Source of the DNA: Diplonema papillatum
Taxonomy: Eukaryota; Euglenozoa; Diplonemea; Diplonemida; Diplonemidae
Assembly: GCA_030068145.1 (NCBI GenBank)
Contig: JAPJBO010000226.1
Coordinates: forward strand, 1 to 64,000
Length of the DNA: 64,000 nucleotides
Direction of reading: 5' to 3'
The notes under the pieces were generated by a model, which saw nothing but the letters and a program-made list of their open reading frames with translations, was not told the origin of the DNA and did not search any database. Of the stretch, positions 1 to 53,480 are shown piece after piece (position 1 is the stretch's first letter; each line of letters begins with the position of its first letter). The translations under genes and the position numbers were made by a program.

Positions 1-78
1 AAAAAGAAAAAAAAAAAAAAAAAAAAAGAGAGAGAACAGAGAGAATCAGAGAAGACAGAAGGCCAGCCTCCCCACGGG
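1..78 (+). other. A-rich leader before LINE ORF1
   Basis: An A-rich tract (about 1-30) followed by GA-rich sequence leads into the ORF1 start codon at 79. It may be the 5' UTR of the retrotransposon or the A tail of an older insertion upstream. The window begins here, so the true 5' end of the element cannot be fixed. Confidence 0.4.
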
Positions 79-1800
79 ATGGAGGAGCTCCAACGCTTCA
101 TCGCGAGGGCGCAGCACCTTGCGGAGAAGGCGGTGAGCGAGGCGGACATCAGCGCCGCGTACGGGATCGTCAAGATCCTGCTCGTTCTTGCGGAGAAGGC
201 GGCGGGGCAGCCCGTGAAGGCAGAGCAGACGCAGCCTGCGAAGGCAGGGCGGAAGCAGGCTGCGAAGCAGACGGCGGCGACACCGGCGGCGAAGGAGACG
301 AGGGCCGACGACGCCCGCGACGTGCAGACTGACCGGGAGGACGCAACGCAGCGGCCGGGCGTGACATGGGCGAACGTGGTGACGAGAAGTCCGCAGGCGA
401 GGGGCGGATACGTGAAAGCGCCGGGAGTCAGCCGCGGAAAGAGGCTGAGGCCATGCGACTGGCATGTCGAGGTGGTCGAGGCGGAGAAGGCGGAAGACAT
501 CCGGCAGGGGGTGGTCTACGCCGGAAGAAAGGAAACGGGGGAGCAGCTTGGTGCGGGGTACCGAGAGCTGTTGGAGATGGAGGCGAAGGACCTTAGGGTC
601 GCGCTGGTGACGCCGGGCAGGCTGACGGACGAGAGTCGGGAGCGGATCGTCAGATTCGACAACGGCACGGAGGCGTCGTGTTACGTGACGCAGTGGGGTG
701 GAGCCGACGTCGGGCGTGTACCGATCGCGAAGGAGGTCGAGGTGGGAGATGCGACCACGGTCATGTGGTGTACAGTAATGTACAAGGACGTCGACGAGAA
801 GACACGCACCTCGCTGAAGAGTGCCGCGACGGGAGCAGGAGCAGCAGACGTGCTGTGTCGAAGAGCAGCGGCGGCCGCGGGGGTCACCATCGAGAGGAGG
901 CATCGGTTTAACCACCGTTGCACGTCGACGCGGCACACGGTGTCAGTGCGGGTCACGACGCGCGAGGCGCCGACTCTACTGCGCTCCAGCGGCAAGGGGG
1001 GCGTGTACTGGGCCGCGCCATCCTTCGTCAATGGCAACGAGTTGCACCCCGTCGTGTGGCTGGCGGAGGATGCCAAGCTGGAGCAGGCGATGGAGATCGC
1101 CGGACACGCCGACGCGCTCGGGGTGGCAGCGGCGAGGACGCGGTACGGGGTGCGCTACTCCGCCAGCAACCCGGCGGCCCGCAGGACGCTCATCGACAGG
1201 GCCGGCTCCTTGGCAGCGCCGGAGCGCCAGGGCCCCCCCGAGGCGAGGTTCCTGGTGGAGAGCGAGGTCGGTGAGCATCAGGAGGAGATGCTCGCCGCAC
1301 TGCGTGCGGTGCAGTGGGACTGCCGGGTCACGAAGTGCTTCGTGACAGGCAGGCGCACCAACCTGGTGGTCAACGCCAGCACGGACCCGCCAGCCGAGGT
1401 GGTGAAGAGGGCGAACAGGACGCCGCTCTACATCCGGAGGGTGAGGGTCGGCGACGTACCTAGCGGTACGAAGCATTGGAAGGGCCGCATCCCCAACGCG
1501 CGGCTACCCCAGGGGGAACAGGATGCCCCACCGGCGGCTCGGCAGGAGGACGTGGCGCCGAGCGCGAAGCGGAAGGCGGGCGAGATGGAAGGCGAAGCCG
1601 CGGGAAGTGCGGAAGGCGAGATGCAGGTCGATGCGCACGTCCACAACTGGGGCGATGACGTGGAGAAGACGAAGGTGGCCTGGAAGTGCAGCCGCTGCAA
1701 CGGAGGGAAGGGGAAGAACACGCTGCAGAGGAAGTGCGCGTGTGGTGCCAGAGTGTGCCACGAATGCTACCGCACCAGGGAGAAGGCTGGCAGTGGCTGA
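79..1800 (+). CDS. Non-LTR retrotransposon ORF1 (gag-like nucleic-acid-binding protein)
   Basis: A 573-residue open frame starting at the first ATG after the A-rich leader. The N-terminal 110 residues are Ala/Lys/Glu-rich and probably helical or disordered. The middle is globular but not a family I recognise. The last 50 residues hold a compact zinc-binding cluster with a WKCSRC pair, a KCACGARVCHEC block and basic flanks, so the spacing differs from ordinary CCHC gag knuckles. It lies 93 bp upstream of an ORF encoding endonuclease and reverse transcriptase on the same strand, the usual LINE ORF1/ORF2 order. Inference: it coats the element RNA and acts as a chaperone in the RNP. The frame has no stops or obvious breaks, so the copy may be young. 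The function rests on position and the zinc cluster only. Confidence 0.75.
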   Translation: MEELQRFIARAQHLAEKAVSEADISAAYGIVKILLVLAEKAAGQPVKAEQTQPAKAGRKQAAKQTAATPAAKETRADDARDVQTDREDATQRPGVTWANVVTRSPQARGGYVKAPGVSRGKRLRPCDWHVEVVEAEKAEDIRQGVVYAGRKETGEQLGAGYRELLEMEAKDLRVALVTPGRLTDESRERIVRFDNGTEASCYVTQWGGADVGRVPIAKEVEVGDATTVMWCTVMYKDVDEKTRTSLKSAATGAGAADVLCRRAAAAAGVTIERRHRFNHRCTSTRHTVSVRVTTREAPTLLRSSGKGGVYWAAPSFVNGNELHPVVWLAEDAKLEQAMEIAGHADALGVAAARTRYGVRYSASNPAARRTLIDRAGSLAAPERQGPPEARFLVESEVGEHQEEMLAALRAVQWDCRVTKCFVTGRRTNLVVNASTDPPAEVVKRANRTPLYIRRVRVGDVPSGTKHWKGRIPNARLPQGEQDAPPAARQEDVAPSAKRKAGEMEGEAAGSAEGEMQVDAHVHNWGDDVEKTKVAWKCSRCNGGKGKNTLQRKCACGARVCHECYRTREKAGSG

Positions 1801-1893
1801 CTGCATCAGGATCCCCGGGCCACCGGAGGACCGAGGCCCTCGTTCGGGCTGCCGAGTCCTAGCAACGCTACTAGGCAGTTCGATCACGCAGCA

Positions 1894-4800
1894 ATGCGCG
1901 AAGGGGGCGGCAGACCCTCTTCTTCTTCTTTCTCCCCCTCTCTCGACGCGCCAGGCCTCAGTCGTCCGGGAGTTTTACCCCGAGGGCCCGACATTGCGCA
2001 CAAACAAACCCCCCACAATGACCAACATCCGCGGCCGACTTACGGCGAGGGGCAAAGACCCGGGAGCAAGCCCCCCCGAAGCAGGGAGGATGGACCCATT
2101 CCCGGGCTCAGCTTCCAGACGATCCCTCGGGACCTCCTGGAGAGGCTGAGCCGGGTCCCCGAGCTCAGACCGGAAGCCCCCTGGGGAAGGCTGGGGGGAG
2201 GGCATGGCAGGGAAACCCAGCAGTGGGGGCACGCCTATCGACAGGGCGGACCCCCGGTCAAACTGGAGCGGGGGATCCCCGAGGGGCCCCTGAGAGAAGC
2301 TGCGGATGTCATACGTGACCGTCTGGGGTGGGAACCGGACCAGTTGCTGGCCAACTGGTACCGGAAGGGAGTGGGGATAAACCCCCATAAAGACCAGCAA
2401 GAACTTGGACCGAGGGTTGCGACTGTTTCGCTACTGAGTGACACGGTCATGGAGTGGGAGAGGGGGACCCAAAGAGTGAGAACCCCGCTGCCAGCCGGCA
2501 CTCTGTGCCACATGGAGGGCGAGGCCAGGAACCTGTGGACACACGGGATCCGTCCCGGTGATGTCACACACGACAGGGTCTCGCTCACCTACAGAGCTGT
2601 GCACGAGGGAAGGGCCCGCTGCTCCTCCCCCACCAGAGGAGAACAAGGTACGCTGGATCCACCCACAATGCCCCCCCCACCCCCCCCACAGTCACTCACC
2701 CATCCCCCCCATCAACAGTCCAACCCTACGCATTTATGTAACAGTAAAAGAACAGAAGAATCAGTCAGAGGATCTGCACGAGAGCGGCTGTTAACAGCTG
2801 GGGACGTCGAACAGAACCCTGGTCCCGGCCGCACGGAGATGAAGTTCGCGACGCTCAACGTGACCAGCATGCTGCAGTACATAGTAGCGGTTAACGCGGT
2901 GGAAGCCGACCTTCTTTGCTGCCAGGAGGTCACACTCCTTCGATGCAAACGGGCACAGGCGGAGGAATACCTACGGAATTGGTGCTGCCACTGGGGTCCG
3001 CCACCTCCCGGGAGACTCTGTAGAAGCTCCGGTAGTCGCTCGACGACGAACGCTGCGAACGGGGGACTCTGCACTCTAGTACAGAGGCCGATACCGGCGT
3101 ACGACACGTTGGCAGCGCTCTCGCACGTGGCGTTACGGTCCCCGGACCGGGTAAGCCATACTGTAGTCGCAACAGGGACCGGCAGCACCTTCGTGCACGT
3201 GTTCAATGTCTACTGCCCATCAGGAAACGGGAGGGCGGAGAACGAGGAACGTGAGGACATGCTGGAGAAGGTCCTCTTTGCGGCGGCAGACAGCCTCGGC
3301 GACGTCCCCATACTGGTGATGGGAGACCTCAACACGGAAGAAGATCGGTCCCCTGTTCTGCGGAAGGCACTTAGGAACGGATGGTCCGACGCAGCGGAAC
3401 TGCACCATGCGCGCACCGGGAACACGCCTCCGCCACCGACCTTTACCAGCGCCCGGACGTCAGGCACGAGGATCGACCGCATACTCCTCAACCGCATAGC
3501 GGCGTGTGCATTCCGTCAATGCGTCACCACCGCGGTGAACGTACCGGGACACCGGCTCGTGACAGTGACCCTGGATATTGCAGCGCTGCGCCAAAGCGTG
3601 TGGCGATTTAAGGTGCCGCGGGAGATCCCGACAGAGGGGGGGTCCAAGTGGGACCTCTCGGAAGCAGAAGCCGACAGGGAAGCCGTACAGAGACTGGCCA
3701 ACTCCGAATTCGCGGAACGATTGGCGGCGCAGCGGGTGGAAGAGGCCTGGCTCGAGTGGTCACGGGTCAGTGAGCGGTACTTGCAGGATGCATTCGCCGT
3801 CCCTGTGGAAGAGAGAGGAAGGGGTACCGGCCGGGGGATGAAGACATTGCCGAGGAGGGTCTGTGTCACGGCGGGCACTGCGACCGACGGGTCGGGGGCA
3901 GCGAACAGCAGGCAGCTACGGCTTAGAAAGGCCATCCACCGGATGGAACGCATCTGCAGCTACCTCGCGCAACGTCGCGGGCCGGAAGCTGTTCCACATG
4001 AGGTGTCCCTCTGCTGGCAGAACTGCAAGCGGCTGGCACAAGCGTGCATGGTGGGCGACCAAGGCGCAGGGGGGTTTCCGGATCATGAGAAGGCGAAGCA
4101 GCTGCTCACAGCGTTGCGGGAAGAGACGAGTAGGCTCGGAAGGGAAGGATCTGCGGCCAGGTTTACGAAGTACCGAGACAAGCTTAACGAGAGGGCGGAC
4201 GCGAGCAGACGATGTCTAGCGACCGTCTGCGCCGGTCGCGCTGAGCCGTCGGGTGTGTTGCGCACCGGAGCGAAGATGACTGCAAATGTGGACGAGATGG
4301 ACGAGGTGTTGCACACTGCGTGGGACGCTATCCTGCGTAAATACAAGGACCGGCCAGAGCCGGAGTACGGACCGTTTCGGGATCGGTTCCAGGAGCACAT
4401 CGACACACACTTGATGGAACCCGGGACGATCACGGGGGAGGAGCTGCGGACTCTGCTAAGGAAGAAGCCGAAGAAAAGCGCGTCAGGCGTGGATGGCTGG
4501 CGCATGGCTGAACTGCGGGAGTTGCCGCTTCCCCTGCTGAATGCGCTAGCGGATGTCATGAACCTGGTCGAAGTGACTGGGGTTTGGCCGGCGAGCATGA
4601 CAACTGCCCTGGTGTCGATGGTGCCGAAGGATGAGAGCCAAGACCCGCTGCACACGAGGCCAATAACCGTCACGTCCGCTGTGTACCGCCTATGGGCGTG
4701 CCGCAGGCTTGCGGACATAGTCCTGTGGCAGGAGAAGTGGATCGAAGAAGGACAGAAGGGCTTTCGACCGGGTCACCGTATCGAGGACGTCCTGATGGAG

Positions 4801-7800
4801 ATAGGGCTCGAGATGGAGGACGCCTTGCTAGATGGAGAGCCGCTCTACGGAGTGGCGCTGGACTTCCGGAAATGTTTCGACATGGTCCCGCGAGAGATAG
4901 TGCTGCGCCTGGCCGGGGACTTAGGGTTGCACAATCGGGTTCTCAAGCCGCTGAGGGCGATCTACAGACTGCTCGCGAGACGCTTCAAGCTGCCTCTAGG
5001 GGTGGGCAGGGAGTTTAGTGTGACCAATGGTATCCTTCAAGGGTGCCCTGTATCCGTCATCCTCATCAATGCCCTGCTGTCGGTAGTGATGAAGGCGGTC
5101 AAGAAAGAAGCGGAGGGGGTGAGCCCAAAGTCGTACGCGGACGATGCCACGCTGCTATCGCGGCTGTCGGAGGCCGCCCTGCAAAAGGGGGTGGACGTGG
5201 TAGACGAGTTCTGCACGCTCACCGGAATGGAGCTGAACCTCCAGAAAACGGTCGCCTTCTCGACGAGACGTAGGCATCAGTCGACGCTCAGACTCCGCAG
5301 CGTGGATGCGCTGCTGCGGTTTGGCAAATCTGTCACGTGCCTGGGGGCCCTAGTCTCGACGGCGAAGAATAGGACAGAAAGGTCCGACTCGGAGAGGGTG
5401 GAGAAGGCGGCTGCCCTGGCGGAAGGCCTCCGCCATGCGCCGTTCCGGTACGAGAAGCGGGTCCGGATTGTACAGTCGAATGTGCTGCCGGCGGCGCTGT
5501 CAGGCTGCTCTTTCGCGCCGGTGTCGAAGGTGGCAATGAAACGGCTGACGACGTCGGTGATGGGACTGATCTGGGGTGGGTCCAACCCAAAGCGCGCGAG
5601 GGAGATGGTCCTAAATTTTCAGGAGAAGGGCCACCTGACGGACCCCAGTACATGCCTAGCATATAGGGTGACGACGGCGTTCTACGCGGCGTGCGAGAGG
5701 TTGCCACGACTTCTGCCTCTGATGGAGAGCATCCGGGGAAGGTACGCCGAGGAGGACCTACCCCTGGGGCCAGTTGGACTGGCGATGAAGAGCATGGAGG
5801 AGTGTGGACACGTATGGGGACCAGGGCCCCTGTCTCGCACGCTGAGGAATGGTGCAATATTTGACCCGATAGCCTCGACACCCTCGAAGAGGGGGCATGA
5901 AGTGAGGGCGGATTTGAGGGCGAAGACGTGGTCCCGTCTGGTAGCGAGGCGGCCGGGATTTGAGGGTGTACAGAGAGCCGACTTGGAGCGGACGAACTCC
6001 TTCTGGAGGATGCGTGAATGTCCCGCGCACACCGCGAGGCTTATACGTGTAGCGTTGGCGGGAGGAGTGAACACGGCTGAGTTCACGTCGCGGATGAGAC
6101 AGGCCGGAGCTGAGCCGCAGGCGCCCAGCTGCAAGCACTGTGGAAGCGGCGACACCGAGGACGAGAAACACGTATTCTGGGACTGCGGAGCGTACTCGCA
6201 CATACGGCGACGAGAGGCACATGCCGAGCTGATGGCGGCCAACCGCGCCGACTGGCCCAGATGCACGCTGGAACACGGAGTGGTAGTACCCGAAAATGCC
6301 CACTTCTCGAGGCGGCTCCAGGAGATGATGGCTGAAATCCTTGCGGAGCGGGCAGGGCTCGAAGCACGAGGCTGGGTAGCCAGGAACCCCACGACCCCCT
6401 GGTCGAGAGCGGATGCGATGCCTGCCGAGAAGCTCGACCACCCCTTTGCGCGGATTGCCCCGGCATGGGCGTGGGAGCGGAACAAGGCCTGGGGGCTACC
6501 GACGTTTTATGCGTTGGTAGCGTGGCTGTCAGACATGGAGTGGACCGAGAACGGGCAGGCGTCAATGCTAGAGCTTGCCATCGACTTTGAACTCTTTTCA
6601 GGCCTCAGCATACCGCTGCACGAGAATGCACCGAAGGGGGTGAGGGAGCGAGGAAACGTCCTGCGCTGCATGATCAGCGCGTTGGACAAGCTGGCGACAC
6701 AGCAAGGGCTGGGGAGTTGCGAGCGAGGCGAGAGAGTATGCCCGACGACGTCGCTGTCGTTCATGGGCATCACGGGGATATCGGGGGTGCGGCCCAGGCC
6801 CCGCTTTCGCGAGGCACACACGGGGACGATCCTCGAAGAGCAGGTGAAGGGAAGCGATGTAGGGACGCAGTTCCCGACGTACCCGGACTGGACGGCCGAG
6901 AGAGCGGCGAGGTGGGCCCTGCCTGCCCCACCACAGCTGCACCCCGACCCCGTGCATATGCCGGGTGTCGGAGTAGAGAAGGCGCTCGTCACCTGCGCGA
7001 CCCACCACAAGGGGAAGTGTGAGGCGTGTCGAGCACTCGTCCGAAGGGACGTGCCCACGGTAGAGATGTGCTGTCGGCACCATCACCACGCTGACGATGG
7101 GCAGCCGATCGCGGTGTGCGTGGAGCACAGCACGACGAAATGCGGCGAGTGCAAGACGGCGGCGGCGTGCTGCCGCAGCGGGCATCATGCCTGCCGCACG
7201 CATGGCAGAGGAACCTGCCAGGAATGCAGGGGGCTCCCTACGTTGGCGCAGAGGAGACCGGCAGCGTGCTGCCGCCGCGGCCACCACCAACCCAACGAAC
7301 CGAACGCCCCGGCAACCCCCGGACACAGCAAAAAGAAGAAGAGACCCCTCTCACCCACCCAGGTGGGCGTACAACGAGAAACACCGGCGGGAAAGCGCGC
7401 GGCGCAGGCACCGCCCGCCGTGGTGAAGCAGAAGACGGCGACGACCGGACGGGCGGCCAAGAGGCCGCCACCAACGCCAGGGACCGGCGAACGACCAGCG
7501 TTGAAGAAGAGGGTGCTCGGCACCCCGAAGGAGAGCCCGATCGCCGGCCGCAAGCGGAAGAAGGCGAAGGCGACCACACCCGAGTCAGGGGTGCAACGAA
7601 AAAAGAAGAAGGCCCTTAAAGCAAGCAGCTACCAGAAACGTCCGACGTCCCCAAGCACTCCGGTGCCCTCGAGAGTGAAAAACGTGCAAGCCTGTCCGCA
7701 CCTGTGCCCCCCCACGCAATCTCCAGAACCGCAAGAAAGCCCAGCGCCCCTGGCGCCACAAGTACTCGACCTTGACGACGCAATGACAGGTGACGACGTC

Positions 7801-7809
7801 ATAAAGTAA
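1894..7809 (+). CDS. LINE ORF2: AlkB-like dioxygenase, 2A peptide, AP endonuclease, reverse transcriptase, Cys/His-rich tail
   Basis: A 1,971-residue open frame. Residues about 75-240 match an AlkB-type 2OG-Fe(II) dioxygenase: HKD at 165-167, distal His in WTHGI at 217, then DRVSLTYR supplying Arg228 and Arg234, the 2-oxoglutarate-binding layout of AlkB. Residues 303-311 are GDVEQNPGP, a canonical 2A motif that should release the AlkB part from the rest. An EEP/APE endonuclease follows (LNVTSM near 320, MGDLN near 476, RIDRILLN near 526), then the RT (KGFRPGHR, ALDFRKCFD as motif A, LQGCPVS as motif B, YADD near 1081) and a CxxC-H-C knuckle near 1412. The C-terminal 270 residues contain many CC, HH and CxxC pairs, then a long Lys/Pro/Arg-rich tail. 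All catalytic motifs are intact. The exact start Met is uncertain because the first 70 residues are low complexity. The RT and EEP calls are secure; AlkB is strong by motif geometry. Confidence 0.92.
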   Translation: MREGGGRPSSSSFSPSLDAPGLSRPGVLPRGPDIAHKQTPHNDQHPRPTYGEGQRPGSKPPRSREDGPIPGLSFQTIPRDLLERLSRVPELRPEAPWGRLGGGHGRETQQWGHAYRQGGPPVKLERGIPEGPLREAADVIRDRLGWEPDQLLANWYRKGVGINPHKDQQELGPRVATVSLLSDTVMEWERGTQRVRTPLPAGTLCHMEGEARNLWTHGIRPGDVTHDRVSLTYRAVHEGRARCSSPTRGEQGTLDPPTMPPPPPPQSLTHPPHQQSNPTHLCNSKRTEESVRGSARERLLTAGDVEQNPGPGRTEMKFATLNVTSMLQYIVAVNAVEADLLCCQEVTLLRCKRAQAEEYLRNWCCHWGPPPPGRLCRSSGSRSTTNAANGGLCTLVQRPIPAYDTLAALSHVALRSPDRVSHTVVATGTGSTFVHVFNVYCPSGNGRAENEEREDMLEKVLFAAADSLGDVPILVMGDLNTEEDRSPVLRKALRNGWSDAAELHHARTGNTPPPPTFTSARTSGTRIDRILLNRIAACAFRQCVTTAVNVPGHRLVTVTLDIAALRQSVWRFKVPREIPTEGGSKWDLSEAEADREAVQRLANSEFAERLAAQRVEEAWLEWSRVSERYLQDAFAVPVEERGRGTGRGMKTLPRRVCVTAGTATDGSGAANSRQLRLRKAIHRMERICSYLAQRRGPEAVPHEVSLCWQNCKRLAQACMVGDQGAGGFPDHEKAKQLLTALREETSRLGREGSAARFTKYRDKLNERADASRRCLATVCAGRAEPSGVLRTGAKMTANVDEMDEVLHTAWDAILRKYKDRPEPEYGPFRDRFQEHIDTHLMEPGTITGEELRTLLRKKPKKSASGVDGWRMAELRELPLPLLNALADVMNLVEVTGVWPASMTTALVSMVPKDESQDPLHTRPITVTSAVYRLWACRRLADIVLWQEKWIEEGQKGFRPGHRIEDVLMEIGLEMEDALLDGEPLYGVALDFRKCFDMVPREIVLRLAGDLGLHNRVLKPLRAIYRLLARRFKLPLGVGREFSVTNGILQGCPVSVILINALLSVVMKAVKKEAEGVSPKSYADDATLLSRLSEAALQKGVDVVDEFCTLTGMELNLQKTVAFSTRRRHQSTLRLRSVDALLRFGKSVTCLGALVSTAKNRTERSDSERVEKAAALAEGLRHAPFRYEKRVRIVQSNVLPAALSGCSFAPVSKVAMKRLTTSVMGLIWGGSNPKRAREMVLNFQEKGHLTDPSTCLAYRVTTAFYAACERLPRLLPLMESIRGRYAEEDLPLGPVGLAMKSMEECGHVWGPGPLSRTLRNGAIFDPIASTPSKRGHEVRADLRAKTWSRLVARRPGFEGVQRADLERTNSFWRMRECPAHTARLIRVALAGGVNTAEFTSRMRQAGAEPQAPSCKHCGSGDTEDEKHVFWDCGAYSHIRRREAHAELMAANRADWPRCTLEHGVVVPENAHFSRRLQEMMAEILAERAGLEARGWVARNPTTPWSRADAMPAEKLDHPFARIAPAWAWERNKAWGLPTFYALVAWLSDMEWTENGQASMLELAIDFELFSGLSIPLHENAPKGVRERGNVLRCMISALDKLATQQGLGSCERGERVCPTTSLSFMGITGISGVRPRPRFREAHTGTILEEQVKGSDVGTQFPTYPDWTAERAARWALPAPPQLHPDPVHMPGVGVEKALVTCATHHKGKCEACRALVRRDVPTVEMCCRHHHHADDGQPIAVCVEHSTTKCGECKTAAACCRSGHHACRTHGRGTCQECRGLPTLAQRRPAACCRRGHHQPNEPNAPATPGHSKKKKRPLSPTQVGVQRETPAGKRAAQAPPAVVKQKTATTGRAAKRPPPTPGTGERPALKKRVLGTPKESPIAGRKRKKAKATTPESGVQRKKKKALKASSYQKRPTSPSTPVPSRVKNVQACPHLCPPTQSPEPQESPAPLAPQVLDLDDAMTGDDVIK
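2116..2600 (+). other. AlkB-like 2OG-Fe(II) oxygenase domain within LINE ORF2
   Basis: The encoded segment has the facial triad HxD (His165, Asp167) and His217, with Arg228 and Arg234. The block R-V-S-L-T-Y-R parallels the R-Y-N-L-T-F-R end of bacterial AlkB, and THGI parallels its YHGI. AlkB enzymes oxidatively remove alkyl groups from nucleic acid bases. Inference: repair or demethylation of the element's own RNA or cDNA, as proposed for AlkB domains in some plant RNA viruses. Substrate and activity cannot be read from sequence. Confidence 0.85.
2800..2826 (+). other. 2A ribosome-skipping motif (GDVEQNPGP)
   Basis: The nine residues fit the 2A consensus D-V/I-E-x-N-P-G-P, with the upstream context RLLTA typical of active 2A peptides. 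Known behaviour of the family: the ribosome fails to join Gly and the final Pro, giving two proteins from one frame. Here the break falls between the AlkB domain and the endonuclease, so AlkB would be a separate N-terminal product of about 310 residues. 2A peptides are known in some non-LTR retrotransposons. Confidence 0.9.
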
Positions 7810-7868
7810 CCTTAAGCGGCGACACAGTGCATGCTAATCCATGTGGTTCATGTACTTAAAAGAACTCA
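7810..7868 (+). other. 3' UTR and probable 3' end of the LINE
   Basis: The sequence after the ORF2 stop, including GCATGCTAATCCATGTGG and a TACTTAA-containing end, is shared with the minus-strand copy ending near 41618. Similarity between the two copies stops at about 7868, which marks the likely 3' terminus. No poly(A) tail is present. Confidence 0.6.
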
Positions 7869-8636
7869 ATGCTGAGCCGCACTCACAGTGGGCGGCACTC
7901 CCAGCAGAGATGCATCATCCGGCTACGAATCGGTACGTCCAGACCCGGCCCCGGGCTGCCAACTGTAGCAGTCAAGTTGCAAATCACCAACCACCACGAA
8001 GCTTTGTCGAAGGCCGTTAGGCAGAAGAAAACAGTCGAACGACGAAACGGAGTCATCACGATTTCCCAAGAAGTCTACAGTAGGGTCGGGCATGCGTGCA
8101 CCCTACGACCCGACCCTACTGTTCCCGGGCACCGACCAGCACCGGTGCCAGCCCCCACACTGTTCTGTACTACTAGTACAGTCACCCGCAGCACCCCGCA
8201 CGGCTCAACGTGTGCTGCGTTGCAGGCTAAAGTTTCGTGACACGTCTCGTATTGTTTCCTTGATCATAATTTGGATGAACTCCTCGGTTTGTGAAAACCG
8301 AGTGTGGCTGCCGGCAGCAGTGCCGCGGAACAAGCACAGCGGAGTGACAGCCACGCGTTCGTAGCGCGGTGGCGGCGACGTCTGCAGAGTCTGGGGTGCG
8401 GTAAGGATCGGCAAGGCCTCCGGGTTCAGTCGGCGTTTCGCCAGATCCAGCAGTCTTGAACAGGTGATGACTCAGCTGGGAACGGAGACTTTCTTCGAGC
8501 TGCCGGCCATTGACTTCAATTTGAAGCCTACAAGGGTTTCGGCAGACGAGTGTGACCTTACCGAACGACCACCCAGTACCTGCATCTGCAGGCCGCTCAC
8601 ACGATTCCGTGACCACGTTTTGTCGTAGATCGCTCA
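7869..8636. other. Unassigned stretch with one long hairpin
   Basis: No convincing gene. The arms AGTAGGGTCGGG (8079-8090) and CCCGACCCTACT (8109-8120) form a perfect 12-bp stem with an 18-nt loop. Minus-strand reading of 8230-8636 may continue the decayed RT remnant that lies just upstream on that strand, but I cannot align it to a motif. Confidence 0.4.
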
Positions 8637-19699: not shown

Positions 19700-22600
19700 T
19701 CATTCGTCGGACCGGGACGAAGACGGGGACGAGGACGAGGACGAGGACGAGGAAAGGGAAGAGGAGGACGAACCGCAAGACGTAGAATCTTCCTCTGTCT
19801 CTTCTTCATCTTCTTCAACTTCTTCAACTTCTTCTTCTTCTTCAAATGCAGTCAACACTAAAACTGCCTTCTCGAAGAGAGTCTTTCCGTCAGCGGCAAA
19901 CCTGACATTAACTGCCTCCAGTTTTTCCCACTTGGAATCTGGAGCCGGTTCTGTCTTCTTCCGGCTGTCACCAGCGGCCCGTCGACGTTTCTGCGCCCAC
20001 CAAAGTCTACTTCCGGTCTCGATGAGCTCCCTTGCAGCAGCATCATCCCTCGGACCGTTTTTCACCAACATCAGCTCTGCACTGACGCTTGGCACTTTCG
20101 TCCGGTTGCGTACTGAGGGCAGTCGCGCCCGCATCTGACCGAAGTCACGCTCTACGCCGGCGCTACTAGCGCACGTGCAGCAGATGGCAACTTGCACCAC
20201 GCGCGGGACATTTTCTGTCATGTCCGCGTACGAGGCCAGTCGCTCCGACCAGAACTGCAATGGGTTCGGTGCGCCCGAACTCTTCTTGAAGGCTATGGCT
20301 GCAGCCTTTAGAGTCTGCCACTCCTGCAACAGACTCTTTGGCGGTACGTCAGCAAAGGAGCACAGACTCTCCCACGCGTCATTCCTGAAGCCTGGTTGCC
20401 GTAGTTCCGCCTCTTTGCAGAGAACACAGCTTACGACCAGGTTCGCAAGCACCACGTGTTCCGAAAGAACTACTTCCGGGACCATAAGTTTGGTTATGTC
20501 CTGGTGAATAGCCCGAAACCTTTTCGGAACGGTGTTGTCGATGGCCATTTTGCACAGTCGCATTTGAGTATTGCGAACGGCTCCTTCTATCTCGCAAGCC
20601 AGTCCTGCTTCAAGCTGGGCAACAAGCTGCGGGGAGGCAATTGTACGAAACAATTCGTGCAAATACTTCAGATCCGAAGCGAAGGAGGCTTTCTGCAAGC
20701 GGTCACAGAGCTTTCCTCTTTTCAGAAGCTTTACCTCCATGTCTGCAGCTTGGCTTTTTTTTTTTGATTTCTTCGTCTTCGCCCGGCTGAAGAGTTCCCT
20801 GTCACTCAATACAGCCAGCCATCCCTCCCGCATGCCAGGGGTGCAAGCGTTGGCGAAAGACCTCTCCCACTTCTTCATCCAACGAATGCGCCAGCTCGCG
20901 TCCGGCTTTGGCATCTTATGGCCCATCGCGTCCTCGAGAGCCCGGCGAAGAAGATTGCTTCCCCGAAAGATGCTGTTAATCTGGCGGAGCACAGACGTCA
21001 TGTCTTTAAACGCTGGGCAGTCTAGCAAGATTTTCATCTTGACCTGCATTCTGTGTGCAGCGTCCATGCTCATCGCCAGAGACCGCCCAGCCGCCTTCCC
21101 CATCAACGCCGCGGCACCGTTGTCGCAACCTGTCATCGTCGATCCGTCGTCCGAGCTCCACCCATATACGTGACGAGGATGCAGGCTCATCTGCTTCAGC
21201 ACTTCGTCTATGGCGGCAAAGGCTGCCTCTCCAGTTGCACCAAACTTCTTCTTTTTGTTCGTCTTCTTCGTGGCTGTCGGGGCGGATGTCTGCCCCTTAG
21301 CAGTTGAGCCCTTCGGAGCTGGCTTGGCAGCAGCTTTTCTGTTCGAGCTTTGCACTTTCGGGGTTGGTGCCGGCTTGGCAGCAACCTTCTCGCTCGACTT
21401 CGAACAGCGCGCTTTCGAGGTTGTCGTTGCTTGCCCCTTTGCAATTGTCGGCTTGACAGTGACCGCAGGCTTGTTCGCGGACGAGGGCTCCGACGCAGAT
21501 GGAGGTGGCAAGGGTCCTCTGGCAGCGAAGAACGCGGTGATGGGTTTGACGCCTAAAGCAGCTGCGACGGCAGACGGGGTTTGTACCGCCGCCTTCGGTG
21601 TCTTCGCCGTCGGTGGAGCAGCTGCGTTCTTCTGCTTTGGGATCCTCGTGCCCTTAAGCCTCGGTTTTCGTGCTGGGAGCGCGACGGCCGATACTAGGCC
21701 GACGAAAACTTCCTTCACCAGTAGTGGCGACGACAAGTCTACCCACCGCAACCGGACGGCCAAGACTTCATCACCACAATGCGGCAACGAGGAACCGTCG
21801 ACCACAACGAACAAAGGCGGTACGCACTTCGGTCCACGTGACAGTAGATCCTGTCGTAGCCGAAACAAGAGCAGTTTCGCCCACACGCCGATGAGCTCCC
21901 GGATGTCTCGTCGGAGCCCGTGCCTCTTTGTGACGGCGGTTCCTTGCAGCTGCTCGCCCCACAATTGGTGAGCGATCTGGCGGTGGCTGAGACCACCCAT
22001 GACACCGACATAGGCACGGGCATTGAGATTGTAGAGTGGTGTCTCAAGCCTTTCGTCTGTACGCAATGGCAAGATGCGGTCTTCGGTGTTTGAATGCCGC
22101 TCGGGCCGGGAGGGTACGCCCGCTACCGCAGTGCGGACGCTTCGAGCTTTCAACACCGTGAGCGCAGCGACGTGGCCACACTTCTTCAAGTGCTTCGTCC
22201 GCGACTTCTTGGCGGGCGGAGCCGACCAGTTCTGCTCTACCCCGAATGCGTATGCAGCCGCCTTAGCACTAGTCGGATAGGGGACGGCCTTCAGGAGGAT
22301 AGCTGTTCTGCACACTTTGCAAAACGTTGTCTTCCCTTCCACATCGAAGCAGTCTTCTCCTGTCAACTCATACAGAGGACTCTGCGAAGCCGTTGGGTTG
22401 ACGAATCTACCCTCTGATATCGTGAGCTCCTCTTGGCAACGAAGCTGGGACAGTTTGCAAAGTCGAACAACGAAACAGTGATCGCCCTTGAACACGCAGA
22501 AAGCTTTGGACCGGTCTTGCAGCTTGTCGACTTTCTCGAGGAGAGATGCGACCGAAAGGGCACCATCGATGTCCACGGCACTAAAACTGTGAAGGTTCAG

Positions 22601-25600
22601 CTTCTCCCGGAATTCGGTGAACGACTTCAACAAGGGAATGTAAGAGAGGGGGGTGAGACACTCCGTTGCTATGGCGTCGGCGTATGACTGTCTGTCCCGT
22701 TCGTCAACGATGAACTGACCGGCACGTGACCACCACTCCGCCAGCATGGACGTGTTTGGGTTCGCAATAGGTCTTCCTTCCTGCAGTGCGTTCACAACGT
22801 AACCCACAACGTACGTGCTGGCATGCAGCCGAGGGTCGACAGCGGAGAACCCGTTATTGCCTGCAACGGCGCCGCGTTCACGTAAGCCATCAGCCACCGC
22901 TTTTTGCAATGCGCCGGGGCGCGAGTCGTACACGTGAAATTCCCAACCCTTCAATGAAGGGCCAAATTCACGTTGGTCGTTGGAGCGGGTTGGATCGGAT
23001 TTCAACGCTGTCTTCTGACTTTTCCGCGGAGGACTTGTGTCAGGGTATGGGGGGCGGTCACCTGGACACAGGACTGTGGGTTCATCCTCTGCCTTTACAC
23101 CCAGGCGGGCCCGGATCACCCCGAAACAGTCAGGACACGCACAACACGTGCATTCTGAGCAGCGCCAGCCGTCTCTGCAGTTCTTGCCACAGACGTTACA
23201 TATCCACAGACTGTCATCCGGGCACTTTCGCTTCGCAGAAAAGCCTCTCAAACGGAAGTGGCCGTTGCATTCCAGACATCCGAACACCTTTTCTTCGGAC
23301 GTGTTGGACTTTGCCTCAGGAAAAGGATGAAGCGAGTCTTCTGGACTGGCGATAATATCCTCCTCCATCGCGACGACGGTAAGAGGTAGCTGTAACTCGG
23401 ACGGCAAGCACACGTACATGTACTGATCACATGCCACATGGCCTGCTTCTGCGGAAATGCGCACGATGTTCCTCGCCGCAAATGTGGCAGTGTCGGATGG
23501 GGGACCTGTGAAAAGCAGGTGTAACAGCTGTGCGAAGTCCAGGTATCCCAACTTATTGGCAGCCGCGAATTTCTGCACAATGTTGGCACTTGACTGGTTC
23601 TCCGAAGCGTAGCTGAAAAACTCTGCTACGTCTCGGATCTGAGTCCTCGTTAACGCATGCGAATGGCAATGATGAGCTGCCACCGCACTGACCAACATGG
23701 ACTCGCTGACGCTCGGACGTACGTCCAAGACCTCCACATCTACGACGGTCTCCAAGCGCTTTACCAGCTGATCGGCAGCTGCGCTTCTCCGGCATCCAAT
23801 GGTGACCCGAACAGGTTTGGGTATCGGTACCGAAGTCGAGGTCAACAAGGTATTGTCGGGGTCTGGACTGATCACATTTTTCGATGCGACGGTTGTGCTA
23901 GATAGCACACTTTGGCGTCTGTCTGAAGCGTTGAGGAAGCGTGGCAGTACTGGAACGGCCAAAATCTCCACCGTCTCTTTTCCAGTGTCGGCGTCGATAC
24001 TCGAGCGAGTCAACTGAGTGAAATTACGCTCGAGACCCTGGACGAGGGTCGGCTGCATGCGGGAGCTGCCTTGCAGAGACGGCATTCTCACGTAGATGAA
24101 GTGCCCGGTGCGAGACTTCATCTCTGCCATAGACGGAACAAACACGATGTTGTGATTTGTTCGCCACGTCTCCTCACCTTTGAGTATGGCCCACAACTTC
24201 GCAAACGGCAGGTAACCAAGACCTCTTGTCGCCGCAAAGTTCCGCACATCACGGCAAGGAATGCCGGCACCCGAGATGGTATCGAGGGTCAAGCCGTAAT
24301 CAGCAGCACATGCGTTTAATGCTGCATGTGCGATGTCAGCAAGTTGGCACCGTTTCGTTGCCACAACACTTGCATATAAAGCGCACGTATTGCCCTGTTG
24401 CACGCTCTGAAAGCATGTCGCAGTGTCCCATGCCGAAGCCATGCACCGAGCCAGCTGCGAAGAGAAGTTATTTCCCCACTCTGGCAACGAGTCAACGACT
24501 GCGAACGTAACGTTCTGGTGCACCCGGCGAAGCATCACAACGTAGCCGTCTTCGCGGAAGCTTCGGACGCAAGTCTTCCATTCGACACACCTTGACTCTG
24601 CGTCATTGCGCATTACCCACTTTCCGTTTTCCTTCAGGAAAGCAACGTTGTGGCCACTGAGCAAGTCCCTTCCAAGATGCGTCACAAACCCAACAACCTC
24701 AAACTCGTCTTCTGGGGCCACGGTCACGGTCTGAGTGAGGGTCACGGGTGTGCACCTCTTCGCTGTCCCTTTCGCAGTCAAGGCGTACCGCTTCAGCATG
24801 ACGAAAACGGTATCTTCCAATGTAACTTTGTCTGTTACATTTGTTGTGGAGTTTTGCTTGCACGCAGGACACGTATACTCTTCCAACAACGTCGGTAGAG
24901 TTGAAATGCAACCTTTGAGGTGCCATTCAAAGGTTCTCGCGAAACCGGAAGATCGTTCGAGCGCGATTTGAAGCTCCGTGACCGGTTCAGGAGTCACGCT
25001 TGCATGTGTACAGCTTGAGCAAGACTTCGTGCTCAAAAGCGTGTTTGCGAAGCGACCGTCGGTCTGCTGGCGAATCCTGGTCAGGATCTCGTGCGCATCA
25101 TGCATCGCGTACTCCGTGCCTGCCGGGAACATGACTTGCCGCAAGTCAAGAGCTCGTGTCTGAACTTCGGTGTCAGTCTTGTTTGACCGGTATGCCTCAA
25201 CTGTCTTCCTAATTACGGCTGCCAAGGGGGTCGGAGGCTGGGTCTGATTGGTTAGCTGGTTCAAATAGCCAGTGTCCCTGATCAGCAGTTGGAGAATGGC
25301 ATTGATGCAACACGTGTTCTTTGTGTTTGCAATGCCCCTCCCGGCAGTGGCTTCAGGATCGTAGGACCCTGATTCATCAACGCCGGGGTAAACGGCAGAA
25401 GGCCTGTCTGTGGTAGCCCGACTTTCAGGGTTGTGGCTCGGCGACTTCTTCAACGCGGTAGCTGTAGCAGAACGCTGCGCACTGACACCCATCGAAGGGC
25501 GAACTGCTTCAGGCACCTCGATGTTAGGCGGAGTCCATGTGCGGGCTTCGGCATCGTTGGCAAGCTGCTCGTACGCGACCGAATACACCACAGTGGCAGC

Positions 25601-25864
25601 TGCAGCAGCAAGGTCCGGACTTGAAGCTGAAGAGTCTGAGGTCGACTTTGCCTTCGATGTGGATATGACATCCAGACGGCCAGAACACGCTTGTGCCTCC
25701 ACCTGACTAAAATGGAAAAACGTCCAGCTGCCGGGATTGAACCCGCGTCTACAGCACCAAATTGCATAACAACAAAATTGCGACCGGCCAGAATACGCTT
25801 GTGCGACCAGCTCGCACCCGGCGGCACAAGCGTGTTCTCGGCAAGAACACACGTGTGCTGCCAC
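19700..25864 (-). CDS. Giant fusion protein: ubiquitin-specific protease plus hAT-like transposase
   Basis: A single 2,054-residue frame. The first Met (25864) lies in satellite sequence and residues 1-65 repeat the satellite, so the native start may be Met125 at 25492. Residues about 175-440 are a USP (peptidase C19): Cys box IANTKNTCCINAILQLL, paired EEYTCPACK cysteines, His box SGHNVAFLKENGKWVMRND. Residues 440-850 hold two diverged copies of a domain with QQGNTCALYA, LGYL-F-LL and GHFIYVRMP, perhaps a second thiol-protease fold. A Cys-rich finger (FGCLECN, ICNVCGKNC, CSECTCCACPDC) lies near 860-925. Residues 1230-2000 look hAT-like: LFVVVDGSS, an inserted Lys/Pro/Ala-rich linker, WSSDDGSTMTGCDNGAA, AAHRMQ, and the dimerisation block SSAGVERDFGQMRARLPSVR near 1920. 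The tail is Glu- then Ser-rich. No stops interrupt it. The USP and hAT calls are good; the middle repeats are unassigned. Confidence 0.85.
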   Translation of the reverse strand: MAAHVCSCREHACAAGCELVAQAYSGRSQFCCYAIWCCRRGFNPGSWTFFHFSQVEAQACSGRLDVISTSKAKSTSDSSASSPDLAAAAATVVYSVAYEQLANDAEARTWTPPNIEVPEAVRPSMGVSAQRSATATALKKSPSHNPESRATTDRPSAVYPGVDESGSYDPEATAGRGIANTKNTCCINAILQLLIRDTGYLNQLTNQTQPPTPLAAVIRKTVEAYRSNKTDTEVQTRALDLRQVMFPAGTEYAMHDAHEILTRIRQQTDGRFANTLLSTKSCSSCTHASVTPEPVTELQIALERSSGFARTFEWHLKGCISTLPTLLEEYTCPACKQNSTTNVTDKVTLEDTVFVMLKRYALTAKGTAKRCTPVTLTQTVTVAPEDEFEVVGFVTHLGRDLLSGHNVAFLKENGKWVMRNDAESRCVEWKTCVRSFREDGYVVMLRRVHQNVTFAVVDSLPEWGNNFSSQLARCMASAWDTATCFQSVQQGNTCALYASVVATKRCQLADIAHAALNACAADYGLTLDTISGAGIPCRDVRNFAATRGLGYLPFAKLWAILKGEETWRTNHNIVFVPSMAEMKSRTGHFIYVRMPSLQGSSRMQPTLVQGLERNFTQLTRSSIDADTGKETVEILAVPVLPRFLNASDRRQSVLSSTTVASKNVISPDPDNTLLTSTSVPIPKPVRVTIGCRRSAAADQLVKRLETVVDVEVLDVRPSVSESMLVSAVAAHHCHSHALTRTQIRDVAEFFSYASENQSSANIVQKFAAANKLGYLDFAQLLHLLFTGPPSDTATFAARNIVRISAEAGHVACDQYMYVCLPSELQLPLTVVAMEEDIIASPEDSLHPFPEAKSNTSEEKVFGCLECNGHFRLRGFSAKRKCPDDSLWICNVCGKNCRDGWRCSECTCCACPDCFGVIRARLGVKAEDEPTVLCPGDRPPYPDTSPPRKSQKTALKSDPTRSNDQREFGPSLKGWEFHVYDSRPGALQKAVADGLRERGAVAGNNGFSAVDPRLHASTYVVGYVVNALQEGRPIANPNTSMLAEWWSRAGQFIVDERDRQSYADAIATECLTPLSYIPLLKSFTEFREKLNLHSFSAVDIDGALSVASLLEKVDKLQDRSKAFCVFKGDHCFVVRLCKLSQLRCQEELTISEGRFVNPTASQSPLYELTGEDCFDVEGKTTFCKVCRTAILLKAVPYPTSAKAAAYAFGVEQNWSAPPAKKSRTKHLKKCGHVAALTVLKARSVRTAVAGVPSRPERHSNTEDRILPLRTDERLETPLYNLNARAYVGVMGGLSHRQIAHQLWGEQLQGTAVTKRHGLRRDIRELIGVWAKLLLFRLRQDLLSRGPKCVPPLFVVVDGSSLPHCGDEVLAVRLRWVDLSSPLLVKEVFVGLVSAVALPARKPRLKGTRIPKQKNAAAPPTAKTPKAAVQTPSAVAAALGVKPITAFFAARGPLPPPSASEPSSANKPAVTVKPTIAKGQATTTSKARCSKSSEKVAAKPAPTPKVQSSNRKAAAKPAPKGSTAKGQTSAPTATKKTNKKKKFGATGEAAFAAIDEVLKQMSLHPRHVYGWSSDDGSTMTGCDNGAAALMGKAAGRSLAMSMDAAHRMQVKMKILLDCPAFKDMTSVLRQINSIFRGSNLLRRALEDAMGHKMPKPDASWRIRWMKKWERSFANACTPGMREGWLAVLSDRELFSRAKTKKSKKKSQAADMEVKLLKRGKLCDRLQKASFASDLKYLHELFRTIASPQLVAQLEAGLACEIEGAVRNTQMRLCKMAIDNTVPKRFRAIHQDITKLMVPEVVLSEHVVLANLVVSCVLCKEAELRQPGFRNDAWESLCSFADVPPKSLLQEWQTLKAAAIAFKKSSGAPNPLQFWSERLASYADMTENVPRVVQVAICCTCASSAGVERDFGQMRARLPSVRNRTKVPSVSAELMLVKNGPRDDAAARELIETGSRLWWAQKRRRAAGDSRKKTEPAPDSKWEKLEAVNVRFAADGKTLFEKAVLVLTAFEEEEEVEEVEEDEEETEEDSTSCGSSSSSLSSSSSSSSSPSSSRSDE

Positions 25865-41617: not shown

Positions 41618-43004
41618 AGTGAGTTCTTAAGTACACGAACCACATGGATTAGCATGCACTGCCTCGATAGCCAGGTTATCGGATGACGTCGTCACCTGCC
41701 ATTGCGTCGTCAAGGTCGAGCATTTATGGCGCTAGCGGGATTTGGCTTTCTTGCGATTCCAGAGACTGAGTCGGCGAGTACGAGGGCGGGCAGGAGTGCC
41801 CGTTTTCCACTTTCGAGGGCATTGGTGTGCCCGTGGTCCCCGGTCGTTTCTGAGAGCTACTTGCCCTCGGTACCTTCTTCTTCCTTCGATGCACCCCTGA
41901 GTCGGGTGTGGTCGCCTTCGTCTTCTTCCGCTTGCGGCCGGCGATCGGGCCTTCCTTCGGGGTGCCGAGCACCCTCTTCTTCAGCGCTGGTCGTTCGCTG
42001 GTTCCTGGCGTTGGTGGCGGCCTCTTGGTCGCCCGTCCGGTCGTCGCCGTCTCCTTTTTCGTTGCCGCGAGCGGCGCTCGCGCCGCTCGCTTTCCTACTG
42101 GCGTTTCCCGTTGTACGCCCACCTGGGTGGGTGAGGAGGGCCTCTTCTTCTTGTTGCGTCCGGGGGTTGACTGGACGTTCGGCTTGTTGGACTGGTGGTG
42201 GCCGCGGCTGCAACATGCCGCCGGTCGCCTCTGCGTCAGCGTAGGGAGCCTTTTGCACTCTTGGCAGGTTCCTCTGCCATACGTGCGGCAGGCATGATGC
42301 CCGCTGCGGCAACACGCCGCCGCCGTCTTGCACTCGCCGCACTTCGTCGTGCTGTGCTCTGAGCACACCGCGATCGGCTGCCCATCGTTCGCCTGGTGAT
42401 GGTGCCGGCAGCACATCTCTACCGTGGGAGCGTCCCTTCGGACGAGTGCTCTGCACGCCTCACACTTCCCTTTGTGATGGGTCGCGCACGTGACGAGTGC
42501 CTTCTCTATACCGACACCCGGCATATGCACGGGGTCTGGGTGCAGTTGTGGTGGTGCAGGCAGGGCCCACCTCGCCGCTCTCCCGATCGTCCAGTCAGCG
42601 CACGTCGGGCACTGCGGAAGGGGGTGAGAGAACGGGGAAACCTCCTGCGCTGCATGATGAGCGCGTTGGACAAGCTGGCGGCACAGCAAGGGCTGGGAAG
42701 CTGCATGAGAGGGGAGAGGGTGTGCCGGACGACGTCGCTGTCATTCATGGGCATCTCGGGGATATCGGGTGTACGGCCCAGGCCACGCTTTCGCGAGGCA
42801 CACACGGGGACGATACTTGAGGAACAAGTCAAAGGAAGCGATGTAGGGACGCATCGGCGCATTCCCGTGCAGCGGCATGCTGAGGCCCCGTTCTCGGTCC
42901 ATTGTATGTCCGACAGCCACGCCACCAACGCATAAAACGTCGGTAGTCCCCAGGTCTTGTTCCGCTCCCACGTCCATGCCGGGGCAATCCGCGCGAAGGG
43001 GTGG
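41618..43004 (-). pseudogene. 5'-truncated, internally inverted LINE copy
   Basis: On the minus strand it matches the intact LINE from about 6435 to its 3' end near 7868. From 5' to 3' on that strand: 43004-42856 matches 6435-6640 with about 50 bp missing near the TENG codons; 42855-42618 matches 6640-6868 in the opposite orientation; 42617-41618 resumes in order. The frame at 41724-42689 still encodes the Cys/His-rich tail (CCRRHHHQ-type pairs, CRSGHHACRTYGRGTCQEC) and the basic end. RT and endonuclease are absent. Confidence 0.9.
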
Positions 43005-43330
43005 TCAAATTTACGGCTGCCAAACATCCCGTGACACCGCGCAAGGTGGTAAAACGCTCTTTTGTTTTCTTTTCGATTGCTTTTGATGGGGCATGCAGGC
43101 CTGATATGCAAGAATGGAAAAGAGCCCGGGGGGGAACACTTTCCCCCCGGGCTGTACGCGTACGCACCAGTTTTTCGCGTACGCGTACGGCACCCAAAGG
43201 CGGACCGTCTACTACTACGAACTAAGAAACCCCGCGTTTCCGGAGGAAGTTCACAACGACTCCATCCACTCCTGCCAGCGGACTAACCCCTCAATCAAAA
43301 GGGGTACAGGTCAGGGCCTAACTTATTAGG
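43005..43330. other. Two adjacent strong hairpins
   Basis: AGCCCGGGGGGGAA (43123) pairs with TTCCCCCCGGGCT (43141), and GTACGCGTACGC (43154) pairs with GCGTACGCGTAC (ends near 43188). No gene is recognised around them. Confidence 0.6.
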
Positions 43331-53036: not shown

Positions 53037-53480
53037 GAGGCACGCTGGTCGGCCTTCTTCTTTTGACCAGACACGGGGGGCTTGAGCTCTCCGACGCCTG
53101 TCGACCTTTCGACAGCCGTTCGGCTAAACGGATCCGCAACCAGTGATCGTTGCAATCGAGTGGGCCCCACCCAGCTCCACTTCGCCACTCCCAACGACAT
53201 CCAAAATCCTTGGGTTTTTTGAAATGGGGTGTTTTCGTAAGCAAGGCCGTAGACTACAATACCACCGGTAGACGCCTGCCGGTGGTTAATCTTTTTGTTC
53301 AGAGCGAACAAAGTTCGCTTGGAACTCCGGGATATTTATCAAGACTGAGTATTCGCTTGAGAAACCGGGGTTTTAGAGTACTATTCGATCAATTCGCCTG
53401 CAGTTCTGTCACTTGCGAACAGCAAGCGCGTTCGCGGTTAGAACACGCATTTGTGCAGCCACAATCTGCACGGACCTTCC
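53037..53480. other. Upstream region of bestrophin gene 2
   Basis: Presumed promoter and 5' UTR. A GAAACCGGGGTTTTAGAGTA word near 53360 recurs in diverged form near 58630 and 63235. No gene recognised. Confidence 0.4.

What the first reader, a model, noticed from the sequence alone, without database searches (positions are those of the whole stretch)
1894..2830. AlkB-type dioxygenase joined by a 2A peptide to a LINE endonuclease/reverse transcriptase
The sequence shows the complete AlkB residue set (HKD, distal H in THGI, DRVSLTYR) followed by GDVEQNPGP and then a normal EEP-RT. AlkB enzymes repair alkylated nucleic acids and have been seen fused into some plant RNA virus replicases; 2A peptides are known in some LINEs. 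I do not know of a described retrotransposon with AlkB released by 2A. An element carrying its own RNA/cDNA repair or demethylation enzyme would be a new self-protection strategy.
Basis: partly seen in the sequence, partly recalled or inferred. Interest (0 to 1): 0.9.

Follow-up and report, generated by a model that had tools for sequence, protein, structure and literature searches.

The report
Retrotransposon carrying its own AlkB demethylase
A family of jumping genes in a marine flagellate carries an intact-looking enzyme of the kind that strips methyl groups from RNA or DNA, and related enzymes ride on two other kinds of jumping gene in the same genome, which hints at a shared way of getting past a host barrier.

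Summary
Window 1801-7809 is one 2002-aa frame: AlkB dioxygenase (PF13532, E=5.8e-14; catalytic residues intact), 2A motif GDVEQNPGP, endonuclease (EEP), reverse transcriptase. It is no chance fusion: the host genome (almost certainly Diplonema papillatum) holds many copies, sampled here in five subfamilies, and the AlkB core is as constrained as the endonuclease (dN/dS 0.14 vs 0.16). Of 60 endonuclease places with a frame of at least 1980 aa, 59 have AlkB upstream. (2) At least 19 of 73 copies have a spliced-leader exon at the 5' side, so their template was trans-spliced mRNA. (3) Related AlkB modules sit in another LINE class and a Helitron. The substrate is unknown; my best guess is methylated element RNA. 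Nearest published precedent found: an orchid LTR element with AlkB. No expression or enzyme data exist here.

The parts
79..1800 (+). ORF1, 573 aa from ATG 79, cysteine-rich C-terminus, stop TGA 1798-1800
   Evidence: ORF1s of subfamilies F1, F70 and F72 are 24-33% identical
1798..1803 (+). UGA CUG, candidate readthrough stop; ORF2 continues in the same frame
   Evidence: UGA followed by CUG/CUG/CUG/CUA/CUC in five subfamilies
1831..1893 (+). 21-codon block with few synonymous changes (residues 11-31); possible RNA element
   Evidence: one synonymous change, dS 0.07, window vs L011; dS 0.16 window vs L019; no Rfam match
2101..2610 (+). AlkB-type 2OG-Fe(II) dioxygenase domain
2386..2394 (+). 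Fe ligands H196 x D198 of HKD
   Evidence: invariant in 12 of 12 aligned sequences
2542..2595 (+). H248 (Fe), R259 and R265 (2OG side)
   Evidence: invariant in 12 of 12; roles recalled from AlkB literature
2800..2826 (+). 2A motif GDVEQNPG/P; predicted skip between 2823 and 2824
   Evidence: fits -D(V/I)ExNPGP- of PMC4981915 (passages)
2869..3507 (+). EEP (AP-like) endonuclease
   Evidence: PF03372
4843..5262 (+). reverse transcriptase core
   Evidence: PF00078
7827..7873 (+). conserved 47-nt 3' end of the element
41620..43018 (-). rearranged 3' fragment of a second copy (no AlkB part)

Best explanation
This is an APE-type LINE of a diplonemid that has taken up an AlkB dioxygenase in the slot before its 2A. 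Likely working: the element is transcribed along with host genes and capped by spliced-leader trans-splicing. Ribosomes translate ORF1, and a fraction read through the in-frame UGA-CUN, adding AlkB to ORF1. At 2A the ribosome skips, so the products are ORF1, ORF1-AlkB and a separate EEP-RT, much as gag/gag-pol ratios are set. Because ORF1 probably coats element RNA, AlkB is held on the element's own RNP, where it removes methyl groups that mark the RNA for host control or that block reverse transcription. Shown by sequence: the anatomy, its conservation, the missing AUG in three of five subfamilies, the spliced leader at the 5' side of some copies. Inferred: co-transcription, readthrough, skipping, enzyme activity, tethering, RNA as substrate.
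For: Domains and residues. Selection: window vs L011 dN/dS 0.143 (AlkB core) and 0.160 (EEP), against 0.645 (AlkB-2A spacer) and 0.944 (linker). Retention: 104 of 150 scored EEP places, and 59 of 60 with a frame of 1980 aa or more, have AlkB upstream. Same-frame UGA-CUN in five subfamilies although ORF1s of F1, F70 and F72 are only 24-33% identical; CUN is 7.7% of ORF2 codons. First Met of ORF2 at residue 217, 221 or 263 in F1b, F72, F70, beyond the HxD motif. UGA CUA is the high-readthrough consensus in PMC4359377 (passages, human cells). Spliced leader: 19 of 73 AlkB places have an exact 37-nt SL exon 1.9-2.3 kb upstream on the same strand, 0 on the other, and one junction was read.
Against: No RNA, protein or enzyme data. 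F1 (this copy) has a Met at residue 32 and F3 one at residue 17, so those could start there by reinitiation. No shared hairpin was found 3' of the stop. CUA, the consensus high-readthrough triplet, is in one subfamily of five; the others have CUG or CUC. The linker evolves nearly without protein constraint (0.944) and the 27 codons around 2A show 0.649. Over the whole 180-codon AlkB piece dN/dS is 0.255, weaker than in the core alone. The Helitron AlkB cannot be explained by help to reverse transcription. Sequence points to ALKBH8, fold to ALKBH5, so the substrate is open. ORF1 RNA binding is assumed; ORF1 has no Pfam match over a cut-off.
Confidence: 0.5

Rival explanations
1. AlkB acts on DNA: it removes methyl marks from host chromatin or new insertions, so that copies escape silencing. 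This would suit LINEs and Helitrons alike.
For: AlkB modules of one clade sit in two LINE classes and in a Helitron, a DNA element. A DNA N6-methyladenine demethylase is among the best profile matches (8haz, 6.3e-17). The genome paper reports 5mC and base J genes (PMC10161547 passages).
Against: Best single and profile match is ALKBH8 and best fold match the RNA m6A eraser ALKBH5. The LINE arrangement puts AlkB behind ORF1, a presumed RNA-binding protein. DNA marks on these elements are unknown.
Confidence: 0.2
2. AlkB modifies tRNA (ALKBH8-like) or cellular mRNA to favour translation of element RNA, for example readthrough at UGA.
For: ALKBH8 is the closest solved relative by sequence (3thp, 6.2e-7 single, 4.3e-30 profile).
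Confidence: 0.12
3. AlkB is made by reinitiation or a non-AUG start after ORF1, not by readthrough, and is therefore a free enzyme parted from EEP-RT by 2A.
For: F1 has ATG at residue 32 and F3 at residue 17. A block with few synonymous changes lies between stop and AlkB and could be a translation signal.
Against: Three of five subfamilies lack any in-frame AUG before the AlkB core; L013 lacks ATG in all three frames of the 306 nt after the stop. The frame and UGA-CUN are kept across diverged ORF1s, which reinitiation would not need.
Confidence: 0.2
4. Chance fusion or passenger with no function for the element.
For: 46 of 150 scored EEP places have no AlkB match in my lists.
Against: Purifying selection on AlkB, presence in five subfamilies and in 59 of 60 long frames, invariant catalytic residues.
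Confidence: 0.03

Closest known systems
Orchid (Phalaenopsis) Ty3/gypsy elements with AlkB ORF (PMC9289625; passages seen)
   Same: A retrotransposon carries an AlkB-type dioxygenase with intact cofactor residues; theirs demethylates m6A in vitro.
   Different: LTR element, separate ORF, nested in the plant ALKBH5 group. Here a LINE, in frame after ORF1 and before a 2A, closest by sequence to ALKBH8, and with kin in other TE classes.
L1Tc of Trypanosoma cruzi and other APE-type LINEs with 2A (PMC4981915, passages and reference titles)
   Same: 2A in frame with the proteins that the LINE encodes.
   Different: L1Tc has a single ORF, a Pr77 promoter/HDV-like ribozyme and unspliced transcripts (PMC8190864 passages); here an ORF1, an AlkB and spliced-leader relics. 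No AlkB is mentioned in the passages I saw; the original papers were not held.
Plant RNA viruses with AlkB domains (PMC9452765, start of abstract in a search listing)
   Same: A selfish RNA element carries AlkB, linked to RNA methylation.
   Different: Viral polyprotein, not a retrotransposon.
EEP-RT relatives of this element in the protein database
   Same: RT 22-64% identical outside the family itself; 12 of 68 carry an NPGP-type motif in their N-terminal part.
   Different: None of the 68 matched the AlkB profile. Three carry OTU (precomputed Pfam). Gene models can start after the 2A, as P0004 of this very family does, so absence is weak evidence.

Membership tests
AlkB family of 2OG-Fe(II) dioxygenases | profile match and double-stranded beta-helix fold | tested here: met
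AlkB family of 2OG-Fe(II) dioxygenases | HxD...H iron triad and RxxxxxR | tested here: met
   H196, D198, H248, R259, R265 invariant in 12 of 12
AlkB family of 2OG-Fe(II) dioxygenases | oxidative demethylation of nucleic acid | not testable with these tools
   needs purified protein
ALKBH8 subfamily | RRM before and methyltransferase after the AlkB domain (recalled) | tested here: not met
   Pfam on ORF1 and on three ORF2 pieces, E up to 1, lists neither
APE-type non-LTR retrotransposon (LINE) | EEP endonuclease followed by RT in one frame | tested here: met
   PF03372 and PF00078
APE-type non-LTR retrotransposon (LINE) | dispersed copies, some 5'-truncated, with a shared 3' end | tested here: met
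L1Tc/ingi clade | Pr77 promoter/HDV-like ribozyme at the 5' end | tested here: inconclusive
   no ribozyme family listed up to E 5 in window 1-8300 and nothing up to E 1 in L009, L011, L012, L014, L019, L021; clade by RT tree not tested
2A / 2A-like recoding peptides | D(V/I)ExNPGP | tested here: met
   GDVEQNPGP; F3 has GDIEQNPGP
2A / 2A-like recoding peptides | ribosome skipping | not testable with these tools
   needs in vitro translation

The most novel reading that the evidence does not exclude
In Diplonema an AlkB module works as a general counter-defence gene that has passed between unrelated transposon classes (2A LINE, OTU-bearing second LINE class, Helitron) because the host restricts mobile elements by nucleic-acid methylation. 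In the 2A LINE it is delivered by stop readthrough as an ORF1-tethered eraser on the element's own RNA.
Probability: 0.35. Interest if true: 0.92.

Novelty: new variant of a known kind. Interest (0 to 1): 0.78.

Why it matters
A demethylase carried by several unrelated transposons in one genome, and kept under selection in the LINE, is what one would expect if the host uses nucleic-acid methylation against mobile elements; that is directly testable. [quoted passage not shown] The element also seems to use UGA-CUN, 2A and the spliced leader in one LINE mRNA.

Tried and rejected
Chance fusion in one copy: rejected. Assembly artefact: unlikely, since 29 contigs each hold a place with 100% identity over the 340-aa piece, and more diverged subfamilies exist; the genome paper does warn of artificially duplicated or collapsed repeats (section read). 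HDV-like ribozyme or other known RNA: no credible Rfam match. A shared stem-loop after the stop: single-sequence folds of five subfamilies agree on nothing, inconclusive. Relatives in viral contigs: none for the six peptide patterns used. AlkB piece alone in the 5.8-billion set: two matches among 148 candidates, both 33% identical, so a donor outside this genome was not found. Host donor: no host-type AlkB joins the TE clade, but the tree tool warned of long branches meeting, so the donor is open. AlkB in the 59%-identical family (P0012): not learnt, the genome tool did not complete. Cap idea: the spliced-leader cap of trypanosomes carries base-methylated nucleotides (recalled) and AlkB might let RT copy them; it does not explain the Helitron AlkB, so it stays a side idea. 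Fold search in the viral library: not answered. Not in print: I judged by titles and abstract starts of the papers listed in searches (20 of 110; 20 of 158; 10 of 15; 15 of 137; 12 of 166; 10 of 93; 14 of 14), and saw none on AlkB in a LINE or Helitron; one search (8 of 8) showed none on readthrough between LINE ORFs by title. The library holds open-licence papers only.

Full report

Host. The only proteins similar to the AlkB region among those of 0.55 to 1.75 times the length of ORF2 are three from Diplonema papillatum, and a D. papillatum protein is 100% identical to the RT part over 501 residues (P0004). The window lies in an unnamed assembly of 271 Mb, against about 280 Mb reported for D. 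papillatum (PMC10161547, start of abstract in the listing). The Diplonema spliced-leader exon, as I recall it, occurs 517 times exactly and the reversed control 0 times. The database model P0004 begins at MKFATLNV, just after the 2A, so AlkB is missing from that annotation.

Not a chance fusion. A search of the assembly with the 340-aa AlkB piece scored 119 of 559 candidates, and all 119 are listed as matches: 29 at 100% identity over the full length, others in groups down to 69%. With the F3 AlkB, 150 of 329 candidates were scored and listed. In the fetched loci L001-L022, which were chosen for having AlkB, a 2A motif lies in the same frame in all 22. The less biased test starts from the endonuclease: 150 of 1510 candidates were scored, and 104 of these 150 have an AlkB match 0.25-1.7 kb upstream on the same strand. 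The AlkB lists were capped and partly typed, so 104 is a lower bound. Of the 60 with a frame of at least 1980 aa, 59 have AlkB. The exception (C2711, 2379 aa) I could not read. The other 45 have frames of 389-1875 aa, as 5' truncation or later breaks would give.

Selection. Between this copy (F1) and L011 (F72), whole-frame identity is 87.2%. dN/dS is 0.143 in the AlkB core (residues 161-272), 0.183 in the part before it, 0.160 in EEP and 0.045 in RT, but 0.645 in the AlkB-2A spacer, 0.649 in the 27 codons around 2A and 0.944 in the linker. Over the whole 180-codon AlkB piece it is 0.255. The AlkB core is thus under constraint like that on the endonuclease. Between the close pair window and L009 the ratio is 0.50 in the core on 5 changes and 0.81 over the piece, too few changes to read.

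How AlkB is made. ORF1 (573 aa) ends at TGA 1798-1800 and ORF2 goes on in the same frame. The same holds in F1b (L009), F72 (L013), F70 (L014, L019) and F3 (L046, L040). UGA is followed by CUG, CUG, CUA, CUC and CUG in F1, F1b, F72, F70 and F3. Of L001-L022, 16 show this junction before the frame; in L010, L015, L016, L017, L020 and L022 the frame starts elsewhere (truncated or shifted), and their junction was not examined. The ORF1s of F1, F70 and F72 are only 24-33% identical; F3, of which 111 aa were compared, is 67% identical to F72 over 75 residues. CUN makes up 7.7% of ORF2 codons. In F1b, F72 and F70 the first methionine of ORF2 is at residue 217, 221 and 263, inside AlkB and behind the HxD motif; L013 has no ATG in any frame in the 306 nt after the stop. 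F1 has Met32 and F3 Met17, so for these two a start after the stop is possible. UGA CUA was derived as the high-readthrough consensus in human cells (PMC4359377, passages); only F72 has it exactly. I therefore think that AlkB is mainly made as a C-terminal extension of ORF1, and that 2A then frees the EEP-RT. A stretch of 21 codons after the stop has few synonymous changes (dS 0.07 to L011, 0.16 to L019) and may be an RNA signal, but the folds of five subfamilies share no hairpin.

Template. The 5' end of the F1 copy L053 reads: 3' motif of another copy, AAAC, ACCAACGATTTAAAAGCTACAGTTTCTGTACTTTATTG, then the 5' UTR and ORF1. L014, L016 and L019 carry whole or partial spliced-leader exons followed by other element sequence, which suggests more than one acceptor site. 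Of 73 AlkB places on contigs C1-C371, 19 have the exact 37-nt exon 1.9-2.3 kb upstream on the same strand and none on the other strand (the SL list shown was 100 of 517, ending on C372). So at least these copies derive from trans-spliced RNA. The window copy itself begins too near the contig end to tell. L1Tc by contrast is described with a Pr77 promoter, an HDV-like ribozyme and unspliced transcripts (PMC8190864, passages).

The same module in other transposons. A Pfam PF13532 search of the assembly scored 150 of 250 candidates, all over the cut-off; I fetched some of these. L052 (C641) has one frame of at least 2299 aa with AlkB, an OTU match just below its cut-off (2.9e-4), RT (PF00078, 9e-22) and a C-terminal part that I read by eye as a restriction-like endonuclease. 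Its AlkB is 76% identical to this one. Its dS to the 2A-LINE AlkBs is 0.55-0.71, not far above the 0.43-0.46 between F1/F1b and F72/F3, although the rest of the element is of another kind. L044 (C468) is a copy of it whose frame stops before RT. L042 with L049 (C166) has one open frame with AlkB (9.1e-17), Helitron_like_N (1.4e-27) and PIF1 helicase (3e-42). L043 with L051 (C930) has AlkB before a closely similar frame that ends early; Pfam on L043 gave AlkB only. In a tree of 26 rows, 16 rows form one clade (99/98): the AlkBs of the 2A LINE, the second LINE and the Helitron, three of unknown kind (L032-L034), L029 and P0002. Inside it are a 2A-LINE group with P0002 (97/99) and a Helitron-type group (99/100). 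The host-type AlkBs lie outside. The tool warned that long branches meet at this split, so it is not firm, and the donor cannot be named.

Relatives elsewhere. Of 68 RT relatives (7990 candidates scored), 36 are named D. papillatum; 12 carry an NPGP-type motif, and none matched the AlkB profile. Five of these with sequence before the motif showed no AlkB by Pfam. The 2A slot thus looks older than AlkB, but gene models can start after the 2A, so this is weak.

Reading. Shown: anatomy, conservation, selection, stop context, spliced-leader relics, AlkB in three kinds of transposon. Inferred: activity, readthrough, skipping, tethering to ORF1, and element RNA as target. A DNA target is the main rival, since the Helitron copy cannot profit from better reverse transcription. 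The nearest precedent found is the orchid gypsy AlkB (PMC9289625, passages). I found no report of AlkB in a LINE or Helitron in the searches named under Tried and rejected.

Noticed in passing
L042 1905-5000 of the reverse strand with L049 (C166); L043 (C930): AlkB at the N-terminus of Helitron-type frames (Helitron_like_N and PIF1 in C166), with a weak UCH match (0.066) at the end of the C166 piece.
   Followed up: partly
L052 (C641), L044 (C468), P0001: A second LINE class with AlkB, zinc fingers, OTU-like part and, in L052, RT in one frame.
   Followed up: partly
L053, L014, L016, L019; 517 SL exon copies in the assembly: Spliced-leader exon sequence at 5' ends of element copies, followed by differing element sequence: reverse transcripts of trans-spliced mRNA.
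   Followed up: partly
window 7827-7873 and many loci: The 47-nt 3' motif also lies just upstream of other copies, so elements often sit head to tail; several 3' flanks share CACGTGGGCGGC followed by what looks like a stem-loop with changed but complementary arms, perhaps a target.
   Followed up: no
P0002 (DIPPA_14024), residues 1308-1442: A gene model with a weak TRP channel match ends in an AlkB that groups with the 2A-LINE AlkBs: chimeric model or domestication.
   Followed up: no
L033, L034, L032: Closely similar AlkB frames on three contigs with no partner domain sought or recognised, in the transposon AlkB clade.
   Followed up: no
L011/L013 vs L014/L019: ORF2s about 98% identical but ORF1s (L013 vs L019) 25-31% identical: ORF1 swap between subfamilies with the UGA-CUN junction kept.
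   Followed up: partly
window 19700-25891 (-): 2063-aa frame with a ubiquitin hydrolase domain (UCH 5.1e-13); by eye a hAT-like transposase end.
   Followed up: partly
window 48019-49326 and 51948-53123 (-): Two neighbouring bestrophin-type channel genes (Bestrophin_2, 2e-45 and 8.6e-42).
   Followed up: partly
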